From Hufsiella ginkgonis (GTDB lineage: Bacteria > Bacteroidota > Bacteroidia > Sphingobacteriales > Sphingobacteriaceae): a stretch of DNA of 64,000 nucleotides. The notes under the pieces are model-generated. The model was not told the origin of the DNA, ran no database searches, and was given only the letters and a program-made list of their open reading frames with translations. Positions 34,201 through 39,742 of the stretch are shown here, one piece after another. The DNA is taken from NCBI RefSeq assembly GCF_009834915.1, contig NZ_WVHS01000002.1, positions 1 through 64,000 on the forward strand, written 5' to 3'. Every line of letters begins with the position of its first letter. Position 1 is the first letter of the stretch. A program made the translations under genes and the position numbers.

Positions 34201-36255
34201 ATGAGCTTCCTCTATCCCGCATTTCTGTTTGCCTTATCAGCGGTCGCCATACCCATCCTCATCCATCTTTTTAATTTCCGGAGGTTTAAGAAAGTCTATT
34301 TCAGCAATGTCCGTTTTCTAAAGGATATCGAGGTGCGGACCTCTTCGAGCAAGAACCTGCGCAGGCTGCTCATCCTGTTTGCCAGGATCCTGGCGATCAT
34401 TTTCCTTGTCCTCGCTTTCGCGAAACCTTTCATCCCGGATAATGCCAGCCTTAAACAGGCAGGTAATCAGGTGATCAGCATATACCTTGATAACTCCTAC
34501 AGCATGGAAGCCGTGAATAAAGACGGCACCCTCCTGGATGAAGCGAGAAGGCGGGCACGCGAGATCGTATCGGCTTATACCCTGAATGACAAGTTCCAGC
34601 TATTGACCAACGATTTCGAGGGAAGGCACCAACGGCTGCTCAGCCGAGAAGAGTTTATTTCTGCGCTCGATGAAGTAAAGATCAGCGGTGTTACCCGTAC
34701 CATTCCGCAGGTGCTGAAACGCCAGCAGGATATTTTTACCGGTGAGCCAAATGCGCCGAAAACCAGTTACCTGCTTTCGGATTTCCAGGTGAACATGGTG
34801 CCTGATGAAGCTTTTGTTCCCGACAGTACCGTTGCCCTGCGGTTCGTAAAGATCGGCTCGAACCCGCTGCCTAACATCTCCGTTGATTCGGCATGGTTTG
34901 CATCTCCCATACATAAACCGGGTGAGACCGAGCGCCTCATCGTACAGCTGCGCAACAACTCCGATAAACAGGCGGAGAATATTCCCGTAAAACTAAACAT
35001 CAATAAACAGCAGAAAGCGGTGGCCAGCCTGAGTATTCCGCCAAGATCTGTTAGGAGCGATACGTTGTCTTTCAGCGGGCTTACCGGCGGCTGGCAGCAA
35101 GGCGAGATCCAGATCACGGACTACCCGGTGGTGTTCGACGATAAATTCTTTTTTTCATTCTACGTGAAAAAGAGCCTGCCGGTGCTGGTGATCAGCGACA
35201 AAGGCTTTAGTCCTTACCTCAACGCGGTTTACCGTTCCGACCCGTTCTTTAGCCTGGTTAACGTAAGTTCCGGTAACCTGAACTATTCCGGCCTGGGCGG
35301 TTACCCGATGATCATCCTGAATGAACTGGCGTCGATTCCGCCCGCCACCTCGCAGCAGCTGAAGAAATACGCCGATAACGGCGGCACGCTGGTGATATTT
35401 CCCTCGCTCGATGCCGACCTTTCCAGCCTCGGCAGCTTTTTACAAGGTTTGGGCACTGATATTCCCGAAGAAGTGGTGGACCAGGAGACCAAGGTTACGG
35501 CCATGAACGTGAGGCACCCGCTGTTTGGCGGTGTGTTCGAAAAAGTGCCACAGAACATGGATTTGCCGGTGGCGAAGGCCTACATCAGGTACAGCACACA
35601 AAGCCGCACCAGCCGGCAGCCGATACTGGATTTTCCTGGCGGACGCAGCTTTTTCAGCCAGTACCGGTCCGGCCTGGGTAACGTGTACCTTTCGGCGGTG
35701 CCGCTCGACGACGAAGTGAGCAATTTTGCGCGCCACTCGGTATTTGTGCCGATCATGTACCAGTCGGCGTTGCTGAGCCTGCGCGACGGCAAATTATTTT
35801 ATACGCTGGGCCGCGACCAGTTTCTCGAAATAAATAAGATCACCCTGCAGGCTAACCAGGTGTTAAAGCTTAAGAAAGATAACTTCGAGGTGATCCCGGA
35901 TGTACAGCAAGCCGCCAACAGCACCCGCGTATACATTGCCGACCAGGTGAAACAGGAAGGGAACTACAACCTGGTAAAAGGTGACAGTATTATTGCCGCA
36001 GCCGGGTTTAACGACAACCGCGGGGAGTCGGATCTTTCATACCTGGATGACAAGAACCTTGAAAGTATGTTTCCCGGCAGGAAGGTAAATATCTTCAATA
36101 CCTCGAAGGCTTCGATACAAAATGAAATAAAGGAAGTGAACGACGGCATGCATCTCTGGAAAGTTTGTATAATTTTGGCGTTAATTTTCCTGGCGGCCGA
36201 AGTATTGTTAATCAGGTTTTACGACACTGCGGCGCCCAAACCCATTGCAAGTTGA
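34201..36255 (+). CDS. BatA-domain membrane protein
   Basis: 684 residues. Residues 1-~80 are the BatA (aerotolerance N-terminal) domain: FLYPAFLFALSAVAIPILIHLFNFRRFKKVYFSNVRFL then a second helix ILFARILAIIFLVLAFAKPF. A vWA-like segment follows (ISIYLDNSYSMEAVNKDGTLLDEARRRA), then a large extracytoplasmic part. A terminal membrane helix is at ~652-671 (WKVCIILALIFLAAEVLLI). It is the first gene of a long co-directional cluster under a consensus promoter. The real cellular role of these proteins, often called aerotolerance factors, is poorly known. Confidence 0.92.
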   Translation: MSFLYPAFLFALSAVAIPILIHLFNFRRFKKVYFSNVRFLKDIEVRTSSSKNLRRLLILFARILAIIFLVLAFAKPFIPDNASLKQAGNQVISIYLDNSYSMEAVNKDGTLLDEARRRAREIVSAYTLNDKFQLLTNDFEGRHQRLLSREEFISALDEVKISGVTRTIPQVLKRQQDIFTGEPNAPKTSYLLSDFQVNMVPDEAFVPDSTVALRFVKIGSNPLPNISVDSAWFASPIHKPGETERLIVQLRNNSDKQAENIPVKLNINKQQKAVASLSIPPRSVRSDTLSFSGLTGGWQQGEIQITDYPVVFDDKFFFSFYVKKSLPVLVISDKGFSPYLNAVYRSDPFFSLVNVSSGNLNYSGLGGYPMIILNELASIPPATSQQLKKYADNGGTLVIFPSLDADLSSLGSFLQGLGTDIPEEVVDQETKVTAMNVRHPLFGGVFEKVPQNMDLPVAKAYIRYSTQSRTSRQPILDFPGGRSFFSQYRSGLGNVYLSAVPLDDEVSNFARHSVFVPIMYQSALLSLRDGKLFYTLGRDQFLEINKITLQANQVLKLKKDNFEVIPDVQQAANSTRVYIADQVKQEGNYNLVKGDSIIAAAGFNDNRGESDLSYLDDKNLESMFPGRKVNIFNTSKASIQNEIKEVNDGMHLWKVCIILALIFLAAEVLLIRFYDTAAPKPIAS

Positions 36256-37517
36256 TGAAATCATTACTCGTTAAGTCTGCTACCATCTTATTCCCGGGTT
36301 CCTCTCTCTACGGTCGCGTTGCGGATGTGCTTGTCGAAAACGGCAAGATCACCTCGATCGGTACGGGCATTATCCTGCCGGAAGGCGCCGGAGAGGCGGA
36401 TGGTTCCGGCAAATACCTCGCGCCCGGTTTTTTTGACCTGCATGCCAATTTCGGTGAGCCGGGCCTGGAGACCAAAGAAGACCTTGAAACAGGCGCCGCC
36501 GCCGCCGCCGCCGGTGGCTTTACGGGCGTTTCACTGATGCCGAATACCCGGCCCCCGGTACAATCGCGGAGCGAGGTGGCGTACCTCGTTAACAGGAGCA
36601 GGGAGCTGCTGGTGGATGTGTTCCCGTTAGGCGCCATCAGCCAGGAACGGGCAGGGAAGGACCTCGCCGAACTGTATGATATGCATCAATCGGGCGCCAT
36701 TGCGTTTAGCGACGGTAATAAGCCGGTGGCCGATTCGGGGTTGATGAGCCGCGCCATGCTCTATGTGAAAGCATTTAACGGTCTTGTTTTTTCGTATGCA
36801 GAAGACCCTTCACTAGCCGGCGCCGGCAAGATGAACGAAGGCACTACCAGCACCTACCTCGGCATGAAAGGGATCCCATCGCTTGCCGAAGAGATCATGG
36901 TGGCCCGCGATATTTACCTGGCGGAGTACAACGACACCAAAGTGCATTTTACGACGATCTCTACTGCACATAGCGTGGAGCTGATCCGCAAAGCAAAAGA
37001 ACAGGGGCTGCAGGTTAGCTGTGATGTGGCTGCACATCACCTGGCGCTTACCGAGGAAGCGCTCACGGGTTTCGATAGCAATTTTAAGGTGAAGCCGCCG
37101 CTCCGCACCCATGAGGATGTGGCCGCGCTACGCGCCGGGCTCATGGACGGCACTATCGACGCTATTGTTTCGCAGCATACGCCGCATGAAATAGAATATA
37201 AGAACATCGAATTCGAAATAGCCTCTTACGGCATCCTCGGCCTGCAAACCGTGCTGCCGCTGGCGGTGTGCGCCGGGCTCAGTCCCGAACTGATCGCGGA
37301 GAAGCTTTCCGTAAACCCCCGGAACATCGTAGGGCTGCCGGTTCCCGCGCTCGCGGAAGGCGACGCCGCCAATTTCGTGCTTTTTGACACAGACACCCAT
37401 TGGGAGCTTAATGAGGGTACCAATCGCTCTAAATCATCAAATTCTCCCTTTATGGGTCAGCAGCTTACGGGTAAAGTGCATCTCGTAGCAAATAACGGCC
37501 AGTACTTCACATTTTAA
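36255..37517 (+). CDS. Dihydroorotase-like amidohydrolase, probably non-catalytic
   Basis: 420 residues from ATG 36255, which shares one base with the BatA stop. The fold is clearly dihydroorotase/amidohydrolase: GKYLAPGFFDLHANFGEPG, GFTGVSLMPNTRP, AIAFSDGNKPVADS, CDVAAHHL, KVKPPLR and IVSQHTPHE. The metal ligands are largely missing: the usual H-x-H is H63-A-N65; the His of the H-A-E-D loop is Y181; the His of the H-V/I-S-T strand is T234; and the Asp of D-H-A-P-H is Q307. D153 remains. It is therefore probably a structural or regulatory relative (compare PyrC-prime). Database records may call it dihydroorotase; catalysis is doubtful. Co-transcribed with BatA. Confidence 0.88.
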   Translation: MKSLLVKSATILFPGSSLYGRVADVLVENGKITSIGTGIILPEGAGEADGSGKYLAPGFFDLHANFGEPGLETKEDLETGAAAAAAGGFTGVSLMPNTRPPVQSRSEVAYLVNRSRELLVDVFPLGAISQERAGKDLAELYDMHQSGAIAFSDGNKPVADSGLMSRAMLYVKAFNGLVFSYAEDPSLAGAGKMNEGTTSTYLGMKGIPSLAEEIMVARDIYLAEYNDTKVHFTTISTAHSVELIRKAKEQGLQVSCDVAAHHLALTEEALTGFDSNFKVKPPLRTHEDVAALRAGLMDGTIDAIVSQHTPHEIEYKNIEFEIASYGILGLQTVLPLAVCAGLSPELIAEKLSVNPRNIVGLPVPALAEGDAANFVLFDTDTHWELNEGTNRSKSSNSPFMGQQLTGKVHLVANNGQYFTF

Positions 37518-37520
37518 GAT

Positions 37521-38189
37521 ATGGACAAGCGGGTAAAACAAGCGTTAACCGCCGGACTGAAACGGTTCGGCAATGCAACACAAATGGATGCCGGACCGTT
37601 GGAACAGGCGTTGATAACAGTTTTTAACAGCGATCTCCCGTTTCTCGAAAAGGTGGACGCACTTGACGCCGCTTTTGACGACGCACCAAAGGCATCCGCG
37701 CTTCGCGAAGTATATTTCGACCTGCTGATGATCAATTTCTTTACAGAAGACGTAAAGAAGCTGGAAGAGGATTACCTGGATTCGCCAGAATGGGAAGCCA
37801 TCGAAGAAGAAACGCTCGACCGTGGTACCGAAATCCTGAACGTGTTATTGTACCTGAAGGAATGCGAAGACGAACAGATAGCCCCTTCGCTTGAAGACTA
37901 CCTGAAAGAGTTCCTGCTGGTGGACGAGGATGAGTTCCAGGATGAATACCGGATCTATGAAGACGTGATCGACAACCAGGCACTGATGGAAAGCTCGATA
38001 ACCGAAATCGCCGCTGCCGCACAGGCACTTCCCGCAGAATCGGAAATGGCGGAGCTCTTCTACCCGGTGATGAGTTTTTTTTATGAGCAAAAACCTACCG
38101 AGCAACAAATAGAATCCTATATTCGTACCAGCAATGACCCTGGCTTCGATGCTGCGGTGTATGCTGTTCTCTTAGCATTCAGAAACTAA
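37521..38189 (+). CDS. Hypothetical acidic helical protein
   Basis: 222 residues, strongly acidic and almost wholly helical (EEDYLDSPEWEAIEEETLDRGTEIL ... LLVDEDEFQDEYRIYEDVI). No signal peptide, membrane helix or cysteine cluster. It starts 3 bases after the dihydroorotase-like gene, so it is part of the same operon. I do not recognise a family; it reads like a Bacteroidota cluster-specific protein. Confidence 0.8.
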   Translation: MDKRVKQALTAGLKRFGNATQMDAGPLEQALITVFNSDLPFLEKVDALDAAFDDAPKASALREVYFDLLMINFFTEDVKKLEEDYLDSPEWEAIEEETLDRGTEILNVLLYLKECEDEQIAPSLEDYLKEFLLVDEDEFQDEYRIYEDVIDNQALMESSITEIAAAAQALPAESEMAELFYPVMSFFYEQKPTEQQIESYIRTSNDPGFDAAVYAVLLAFRN

Positions 38190-38201: not shown

Positions 38202-38777
38202 ATGGAAGATATCAACAAAGAAATTCGTAAAAACGCGCTGTCGAACGGCGTAATCATCGGGATAATTATCCTGGTTATGAGCATCGTATTGCTCTATCTA
38301 ATGTCATCCTGGGTATCTATGATGGCGCTGGCGGTAAGCGGCGGCCTCACGTTCGTCGTATACATTTTATGCGCTATTTTCTTTTCCATCGACCTGCGTA
38401 AAAAGGTCGGCGGTTTTTGGTCGTTCCGCCAGGCGGTGTCGGGCATCTTTATTATGTTCCTGGTGGCGACCATCGTTTCTACCATCGGTAATTACATTTT
38501 TACCCAATTCATCGAGAAAGATCTCACCGTTAAAATGGTGGAGAACATCAAAACGGCTACTTCAAACTTTATGAGTAACCAGGGGGTAGACCAGGCTACG
38601 ATCGATCAGAAAATGTCGGAGATGGACGTGGATATGGCAGGCAAGCTGCACCCGACGGCGATGGACTACGTTAAAAACCTTTTGACTTCTGTTATCGTAA
38701 TGTTTATTTGCGCGCTTATATTTGCGGCTATCTTTAAAAAGGAGCGTCCGATCGTTATTTCGGATGACGAAAGTTAA
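38202..38777 (+). CDS. DUF4199 membrane protein
   Basis: 191 residues. The DUF4199 layout is clear: a short basic N-terminus (INKEIRKNALSNG), two adjacent hydrophobic helices (~18-34 and ~40-60), a third (~78-100, FRQAVSGIFIMFLVATIVSTIGNYIFTQF), a soluble acidic loop, and a last helix (~160-180). Family function is unknown but it is widespread in Bacteroidota, often beside a DPM-like glycosyltransferase, as here. Spacing to both neighbours is 12-14 bases. Confidence 0.9.
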   Translation: MEDINKEIRKNALSNGVIIGIIILVMSIVLLYLMSSWVSMMALAVSGGLTFVVYILCAIFFSIDLRKKVGGFWSFRQAVSGIFIMFLVATIVSTIGNYIFTQFIEKDLTVKMVENIKTATSNFMSNQGVDQATIDQKMSEMDVDMAGKLHPTAMDYVKNLLTSVIVMFICALIFAAIFKKERPIVISDDES

Positions 38778-38791
38778 TTAAGTACGCACAG

Positions 38792-39742
38792 TTGAATATT
38801 TCCGTAGTAGTTCCCCTATATAACGAAGACGAGTCGCTGCCCGAACTGACCGAATGGATCAGGAAAGTGATGCTGGAGAACGCTTTTTCGTACGAGATCC
38901 TGTTGGTTGACGATGGCAGTACGGATACTTCCTGGGAGGTTATCGAGCACCTGAAACGATCGCACCCGGAGATCGCCGGGATCAAGTTCCGTCGCAATTA
39001 CGGGAAATCGGCAGCTTTAAATATCGGTTTTGAAGCGGCCAAAGGCGATGTGGTGATCACTATGGATGCCGACCTTCAGGATAGCCCGGATGAGATCCCG
39101 GAATTGTATCGCCGGATAACGCAGGAAAAATTTGACCTGGTGTCTGGCTGGAAGCAAAAACGGCATGATCCGCTGAGCAAAACCATTCCCACCAAGTTGT
39201 ATAATGCGGCTACGCGCCGGATGTCGGGCATTAAAAACCTGCACGATTTTAACTGCGGGCTGAAAGCATACCGCAAAGAAGTGGTCAAAAGCATCGAGGT
39301 TTATGGCGAAATGCATCGTTATATTCCCGTAATAGCCAAATGGGCCGGCTTCACCCGCATAGGCGAGCAGGTGGTTGAGCACCGGGCCCGTAAGTACGGG
39401 ACTACAAAATTTGGGCTTAGCCGGTTCATCAACGGGCTGCTGGACCTGCTGTCGATATTTTTCGTAGGCAAGTTCGCTAAACGCCCTATGCATTTCTTCG
39501 GCACAATGGGCGCGCTGAGCTTTATCGGGGGATCTATTTGCGCACTCTGGATCGTGATCGATAAACTGGTACTCATTTCAAATAACCAGCAGTACCGGAA
39601 CGCGACCGATCAGCCATTGTTTTACTTCGCCCTGGTAGCGATCATCGTAGGCTTCCAATTGTTTCTGACCGGTTTCGTGGCCGAGCTGGTTTCACGAAGC
39701 GCTCCTGAAAGAAATTCTTACCAGATTGAAAAAACGGTATAG
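38792..39742 (+). CDS. Family 2 glycosyltransferase with two C-terminal membrane helices (DPM/GtrB-like)
   Basis: 316 residues from a TTG start. The GT2 domain reads ISVVVPLYNEDESLPEL, LLVDDGSTDTSWEV, ITMDADLQDSPDEIPEL (D-A-D metal motif) and FNCGLKAYRKEV. Two hydrophobic helices (~232-255 and ~268-295) end the chain, as in polyprenyl-phosphate hexosyltransferases (GtrB/ArnC type). It likely transfers a sugar from a nucleotide donor to undecaprenyl phosphate. An ATG is absent near the conserved N-terminus, so TTG 38792 is the best start. Confidence 0.9.
   Translation: MNISVVVPLYNEDESLPELTEWIRKVMLENAFSYEILLVDDGSTDTSWEVIEHLKRSHPEIAGIKFRRNYGKSAALNIGFEAAKGDVVITMDADLQDSPDEIPELYRRITQEKFDLVSGWKQKRHDPLSKTIPTKLYNAATRRMSGIKNLHDFNCGLKAYRKEVVKSIEVYGEMHRYIPVIAKWAGFTRIGEQVVEHRARKYGTTKFGLSRFINGLLDLLSIFFVGKFAKRPMHFFGTMGALSFIGGSICALWIVIDKLVLISNNQQYRNATDQPLFYFALVAIIVGFQLFLTGFVAELVSRSAPERNSYQIEKTV

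What the first reader, a model, noticed from the sequence alone, without database searches (positions are those of the whole stretch)
36255..37517. Dihydroorotase-like protein that has lost most metal ligands
The fold is unmistakably amidohydrolase, but of the usual ligand set only H63 and D153 are left: H-x-H is H-x-N (N65), the loop His is Y181, the strand His is T234 and the terminal Asp is Q307. It is translated with a BatA membrane protein, outside any visible pyrimidine operon. Noncatalytic PyrC-prime proteins are known to scaffold aspartate transcarbamoylase; this may be a Bacteroidota-wide analogue or something new linked to the envelope.
Basis: partly seen in the sequence, partly recalled or inferred. 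Interest (0 to 1): 0.68.

Follow-up and report, generated by a model that had tools for sequence, protein, structure and literature searches.

The report
Dead dihydroorotase, probable ATCase scaffold subunit
This gene encodes a dihydroorotase that has lost its metal site throughout almost the whole bacterial class Bacteroidia and whose presence tracks one lineage of aspartate transcarbamoylase, so it most likely survives as a structural partner of that enzyme and is misnamed as a catalyst in databases.

Summary
Confirmed, with one correction. Window 36255-37517 encodes a full-length dihydroorotase-fold protein (420 aa) with a dead metal site. Only one of six ligands, H63, remains, and the substrate arginine is also gone.

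The loss is class-wide. About 135 relatives from Bacteroidia that I inspected are degenerate. The one intact copy comes from a foreign, Hymenobacter-type pyrB-pyrC pair. The dead proteins form one clade (100/100) nested among intact dihydroorotases of other classes of the phylum, several of which sit in pyrR-pyrB-pyrC operons. The genome holds a separate, otherwise intact dihydroorotase and an unlinked pyrR-pyrB.

In 296 Bacteroidia genomes the family is absent from all 15 that have the alternative ATCase subunit PyrI. It is present in 253 of 272 that have PyrB without PyrI. Of the 19 exceptions, 14 belong to lineages whose sampled PyrB falls outside the native clade.

Best explanation (0.75): a structural subunit of aspartate transcarbamoylase, working like Pseudomonas/rhizobial PyrC'/PyrX but evolved separately and moved behind a BatA gene. 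Binding to PyrB is inferred, not shown. The envelope link is only genomic context.

The parts
36255..37517 (+). PyrC' : dead type-I dihydroorotase, 420 aa
   Evidence: TIGR00857 361 bits; PDB 3d6n E 4e-87; AlphaFold pTM 0.89, Foldseek 3d6n_A TM 0.90
36441..36455 (+). H63-A-N65-F-G67: Aquifex H61-x-H63-x-R65; second His and substrate Arg lost
   Evidence: alignments
36711..36716 (+). D153-G154: Aquifex D152-D153; the ligand Asp is Gly
   Evidence: ligand identity from PMC3880350
36795..36797 (+). Y181 in place of H180
36954..36956 (+). T234 in place of H232
37173..37175 (+). Q307 in place of D305
36822..36869 (+). Low-confidence loop, residues 190-205, with conserved N194, E195, S199, G203; candidate for Aquifex loop A
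   Evidence: pLDDT; conservation; loops of Aquifex PMC3880350; equivalence inferred
37068..37097 (+). Low-confidence loop, residues 272-281, running into conserved P281-P282-L283-R284; candidate for loop B or C
   Evidence: equivalence inferred
37191..37229 (+). Low-confidence loop, residues 313-325, with conserved K316, E319, F320, A323; candidate for loop B or C
   Evidence: equivalence inferred
34201..36255 (+). BatA-type membrane protein (684 aa) upstream; stop/start overlap TGATG
   Evidence: PF07584 73.5 bits; upstream on the same strand at 82 loci
37521..38189 (+). Conserved 222-aa protein downstream, no family hit
   Evidence: found downstream at 79 loci
38202..39742 (+). DUF4199 protein (38202-38777) and family-2 glycosyltransferase (38792-39742), recurrent downstream neighbours
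   Evidence: DUF4199 at 78 and GT2 at 90 loci

Best explanation
It is a catalytically dead type-I dihydroorotase (PyrC') kept as a structural subunit of the native Bacteroidia aspartate transcarbamoylase (PyrB). Shown here: the metal site is lost class-wide, with one origin, from an intact type that in other classes of the phylum can sit in pyrR-pyrB-pyrC operons; an otherwise intact DHOase is encoded elsewhere in the genome; presence of the dead protein follows the native PyrB and excludes PyrI. Inferred: PyrC' dimers join PyrB trimers into a dodecamer as in A. aeolicus and P. aeruginosa, and its conserved mobile loops (about 190-205, 272-281, 313-325) become ordered on, and help build, the PyrB interface. 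The PRK09236-type DHOase does the chemistry. PyrC' is made from a membrane-protein operon, away from pyrR-pyrB.
For: Degenerate pocket in about 135 class members, intact HHRNDHHDH in 20 of 20 homologues fetched from other classes, five of them directly behind pyrB. One clade of dead proteins, 100/100, nested among intact ones. Family in 0 of 15 PyrI+ genomes, 253 of 272 PyrB+ PyrI- genomes, 3 of 9 PyrB- genomes. PyrBs of family-bearing genomes form one clade; the sampled PyrBs of f22, f76, f83, G308, Hymenobacter-type G127 and PyrI+ genomes, which lack the dead protein, lie outside it. G127 carries a foreign PyrB with an intact PyrC in place of both native partners. Full-length fold, best match the DHOase of the Aquifex DHOase-ATCase complex. 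Half of the columns conserved in intact enzymes are kept, among them loop residues, while the ligands are lost. Experimental precedents: P. aeruginosa pDHO needed for ATCase activity (PMC7053772); disruption of S. meliloti smc01361 beside pyrB gives pyrimidine auxotrophy (PMC5929573).
Against: No binding data. The gene is not next to pyrB in the class but behind BatA. Five genomes keep native PyrB with no PyrC' found (G423, G429, G472, G431, G479), and two of these, G429 and G472, are sisters. Three genomes have the family but no PyrB found (G053, G353, G394; drafts). f76 keeps PyrR-PyrB without it. A distance test gave partial r 0.157, p 0.077 for PyrB-PyrC'. The co-occurrence is partly shared ancestry.
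Confidence: 0.75

Rival explanations
1. The protein has left pyrimidine metabolism and works with the BatA-type membrane protein and glycosyltransferase neighbours in envelope biology.
For: BatA lies directly upstream in many families of the class, with a stop/start overlap in the window, and the neighbourhood is old and even occurs on a Rufibacter plasmid. Partial distance correlation PyrC'-BatA is high, 0.509, though neighbours and truncated BatA sequences weaken this.
Against: Absence of the gene follows the kind of PyrB and presence of PyrI, which an envelope role does not predict. Whether BatA stays when PyrC' is lost was not tested.
Confidence: 0.1
2. It binds and regulates or stabilises another pyrimidine protein (the PRK09236-type DHOase, or PyrR), not PyrB itself.
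For: The partial distance correlation of PyrC' with PyrR was larger than with PyrB (0.504 against 0.157). The second DHOase coexists with it in many genomes.
Against: PyrI+ genomes keep the PRK09236-type DHOase but not PyrC'. f76 keeps PyrR-PyrB without PyrC'. The known analogues partner with PyrB.
Confidence: 0.08
3. It is still an enzyme, with a different metal arrangement or a metal-free reaction on another substrate.
For: The fold is complete and some pocket residues (H308, K316, P310) are nearly invariant.
Against: The former catalytic positions vary freely between families (F, N, S, W, K, R and others at H61/H63), with no replacement motif conserved across the class; only six columns are newly conserved in the dead group.
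Confidence: 0.05

Closest known systems
Pseudomonas PyrC' / pDHO, subunit of class A2 ATCase
   Same: Type-I DHOase homologue without zinc ligands, alongside an active DHOase elsewhere and a PyrB without PyrI (PMC7053772).
   Different: Here the gene is unlinked to pyrB and lies behind BatA; binding to PyrB is not shown.
Alphaproteobacterial PyrX (Sinorhizobium smc01361 and relatives)
   Same: Dead pocket with the substrate Arg lost and a GEPG motif in several; disruption in S. meliloti gives pyrimidine auxotrophy (PMC5929573).
   Different: Those lie beside or near pyrB and form a separate clade (99/97).
Aquifex aeolicus DHOase in the DHOase-ATCase dodecamer (3d6n, 4bjh)
   Same: Closest solved sequence and fold.
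   Different: Aquifex is catalytically active with an intact alpha site (PMC3880350).
PRK09236-type DHOase (P. gingivalis 2gwn; second copy in this genome)
   Same: Same amidohydrolase fold; both carried by the genome.
   Different: Distinct clade; pocket intact apart from Gln for the first His.
Pseudo-DHO domain of fungal CAD-like proteins (yeast Ura2, Chaetomium)
   Same: Dead DHOase retained next to an active ATCase (PMC7053772).
   Different: A domain of a fused eukaryotic protein; here a separate bacterial chain.

Membership tests
Catalytic type-I dihydroorotase | Amidohydrolase fold of full length | tested here: met
   AlphaFold pLDDT 87.4, pTM 0.89; Foldseek 3d6n_A TM 0.90
Catalytic type-I dihydroorotase | Alpha-site ligands H61, H63, D153, with D305 | tested here: not met
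   H, N, G, Q; ligands from PMC3880350
Catalytic type-I dihydroorotase | Substrate-binding Arg65 | tested here: not met
   G67
Class A2 ATCase pseudo-DHOase subunit (PyrC'/PyrX) | DHOase homologue lacking zinc ligands and substrate residues | tested here: met
Class A2 ATCase pseudo-DHOase subunit (PyrC'/PyrX) | Separate active DHOase in the same genome | tested here: inconclusive
   A PRK09236-type DHOase over its cut-off is present; its first His is Gln and activity was not measured
Class A2 ATCase pseudo-DHOase subunit (PyrC'/PyrX) | PyrB present and PyrI absent in the genome | tested here: met
Class A2 ATCase pseudo-DHOase subunit (PyrC'/PyrX) | Gene next to pyrB (usual, not essential) | tested here: not met
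   pyrR-pyrB is on contig C19, this gene on C12
Class A2 ATCase pseudo-DHOase subunit (PyrC'/PyrX) | Stoichiometric complex with PyrB, needed for ATCase activity | not testable with these tools
   needs purified proteins or a complex prediction
Class A2 ATCase pseudo-DHOase subunit (PyrC'/PyrX) | Common descent with the proteobacterial pseudo-DHOases | tested here: not met
   Separate, supported clades; the Bacteroidia clade nests among intact enzymes. Pseudomonas itself was not in the tree.

The most novel reading that the evidence does not exclude
A class-wide pseudo-DHOase that joins PyrB while its synthesis is tied to a BatA-type membrane-protein operon, thereby coupling pyrimidine synthesis to the envelope, or carrying a second envelope role of its own.
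Probability: 0.12. Interest if true: 0.75.

Novelty: new variant of a known kind. Interest (0 to 1): 0.5.

Why it matters
Most genomes in the class carry this gene and its profile hit (TIGR00857) names it dihydroorotase, so metabolic models and drug-target lists would count a dead protein as an enzyme. If the ATCase role holds, it would be a separately evolved case of a dead dihydroorotase kept as an ATCase subunit, next to the proteobacterial and fungal ones. It would define the ATCase architecture of most non-PyrI Bacteroidia, and it makes a clear knockout prediction: a pyrC' deletion should need uracil although an otherwise intact DHOase gene is present. I found no description of it in the papers library; papers outside that open-licence library were not searched.

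Tried and rejected
1) Chance or a local defect: rejected, because the same loss is found class-wide.
2) Multiple independent losses within Bacteroidia: not needed, the dead rows form one clade.
3) Shared descent with the alphaproteobacterial PyrX: not supported.
4) Rate covariation of PyrB and PyrC': inconclusive; BatA was partly truncated in the loci and few control genes were available.
5) pyrB-pyrC fusions suggested by long open frames in G187 and G128: no PyrB domain in them.
7) Papers giving the interface and loop residues of the Aquifex complex were not held, so loop equivalence stays an inference.
8) A promoter scan was not informative.

Full report
THE OBSERVATION. The ORF at 36255-37517 is real and complete (420 aa). 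Its start overlaps the stop of the BatA-type gene as TGATG. It matches the type-I dihydroorotase model TIGR00857 at 361 bits (cut-off 279) but stays far below the listed equivalog cut-offs. The best solved relative is Aquifex aeolicus DHOase. Aquifex ligands are H61, H63, D153 (alpha site), D305 close by, and H180 and H232 (beta site); H180 and H232 can be replaced by alanine with little loss of activity (PMC3880350). In the window protein these are H63, N65, G154, Q307, Y181 and T234. So one ligand of six is left, and the substrate Arg65 is glycine.

HOW WIDE IT IS. In 101 family members from the class the pocket is degenerate in all, and variably so. The 30 lower-scoring members I fetched on purpose, from 27 genera, are degenerate too, as are the very divergent copies in family f64 and genome G053. 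One class genome, G127, has an intact HHRNDHHDH protein directly behind pyrB; it groups with Hymenobacter plasmid pyrB-pyrC pairs. In other classes of the phylum, 20 of 20 homologues fetched are intact, and five follow pyrB directly, in pyrR-pyrB-pyrC order. A maximum-likelihood tree puts all sampled dead Bacteroidia proteins in one clade (100/100) nested among these intact enzymes (quick version). This is one ancient loss followed by long retention.

THE REST OF THE PATHWAY. The same genome has a second DHOase of the PRK09236/2gwn type, above its curated cut-off. Its other ligands are intact, but the first His of HxH is Gln, as in the solved P. gingivalis protein. PyrB is at another locus, directly behind PyrR; this pair is conserved in all 48 class genomes examined at that locus that carry the family. 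No PyrI occurs in the genome or its sampled relatives (60 genomes).

CO-OCCURRENCE. In 296 class genomes: PyrI over or near the cut-off in 15 (leaving out one short fragment with stops); PyrB in 287; the type-I family in 256 (after removing six matches that are or appear to be PRK09236-type proteins: three were read, the other three were judged from the PyrI status of the genome and the weak score). The family is in 0 of 15 PyrI+ genomes, 253 of 272 PyrB+ PyrI- genomes, and 3 of 9 PyrB- genomes. Nineteen exceptions lack it despite PyrB. Fourteen of them belong to lineages f76, f83, f22 and G308, whose sampled PyrB is 35-50% identical to the native one and falls outside the clade formed by the PyrBs of family-bearing genomes. 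Five have native PyrB (G423, G429, G472, G431, G479). In G127 both native partners are gone and a foreign pair is present; in its congener G217 both are undetected. These are my tallies from the tool tables; related genomes are not independent, so I give no p-value. The lineage-level pattern is what counts: the PyrI+ lineages, f22, Hymenobacter, f76, f83 and G308 lack the dead protein and have a PyrB outside the native clade, and f73 lacks both.

STRUCTURE AND CONSERVATION. AlphaFold with 25 relatives gives pLDDT 87.4 and pTM 0.89. The best PDB match is the Aquifex DHOase in its ATCase complex (TM 0.90). The stretches with pLDDT under 50 lie within residues 190-205, 272-281 and 313-325. In free Aquifex DHOase three loops (A, B, C) are disordered and become ordered in the ATCase complex (PMC3880350). 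I equate them by position, which is an inference. Of 78 columns conserved at 95% or more in intact enzymes, 39 are kept at 80% or more in the dead ones. Kept columns include E195, G203, P281-P282-L283, H308, K316, A323 and G326, in or beside those loops; the lost ones include all six ligands and the substrate Arg. This is what retention for binding and not for catalysis predicts, though fold constraints contribute.

HOW IT PROBABLY WORKS. By analogy with P. aeruginosa, where inactive pDHO must join PyrB to give active ATCase (PMC7053772), and with S. meliloti, where disruption of the annotated DHOase beside pyrB causes pyrimidine auxotrophy (PMC5929573), PyrC' most likely assembles with PyrB and the other DHOase performs catalysis. 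The alphaproteobacterial dead proteins sit beside or near pyrB but form another clade, so the Bacteroidia case looks like a separate origin of the same solution. The move behind BatA is unexplained. The BatA-PyrC' order is old, but BatA presence after PyrC' loss was not tested. A rate-covariation test did not show a direct PyrB-PyrC' signal.

VERDICT. Dead as an enzyme: about 0.95. ATCase subunit: 0.75. It works like class A2 PyrC' but is not filed as a member, because binding is untested and descent looks separate. New variant of a known kind; interest 0.5.

Noticed in passing
L009:10210-11544 (G000:C12, about 700209): The genome's second DHOase (PRK09236 type) has Gln for the first metal His (IDDQVHFREPG), as in P. 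gingivalis 2gwn, while some relatives keep His. Whether and how it binds two metals is worth a look.
   Followed up: partly
L313 (Rufibacter tibetensis plasmid 2, 12.5 kb): A small plasmid carries the window-like gene set: BatA-type gene, dead PyrC, two DUF4199 genes and two glycosyltransferases, and no other annotated gene in the record.
   Followed up: partly
L315, L325 (Hymenobacter plasmids), L143 (G127): Hymenobacter-type genomes carry a foreign pyrB with an intact pyrC, in two cases on plasmids, in place of the native PyrB and dead PyrC.
   Followed up: partly
window 37521-38189: A 222-aa protein with no family hit in Pfam or NCBIfam recurs directly downstream of PyrC' in Sphingobacteriaceae and some other families.
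   Followed up: no
families f76 (G265, G297, G323, G348) and f83 (G281, G310): Lineages with a divergent PyrB, no PyrI and no PyrC', and a DHOase of a divergent PRK09236-like type in those read; they may show how PyrB became independent of a partner.
   Followed up: partly
L145, L146, L150 (f64 g148): Extremely divergent PyrC' copies with a W-N-H-G motif in place of H-x-H, still full length and in genomes with PyrR-PyrB.
   Followed up: no
G278:C1:3673936-3675179 and MAGs G435, G314, G383, G293, G376, G444: PyrC' broken by a frameshift (G278) or by internal stops in several assemblies; sequencing error or recent decay was not resolved.
   Followed up: no
G007:C1:2557132-2558024 and G007:C1:300962-301861: In G007 pyrB is split in two frames and a second, more distant PyrB-like gene of about 370 aa exists; G031 of the same genus has the second gene too.
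   Followed up: no
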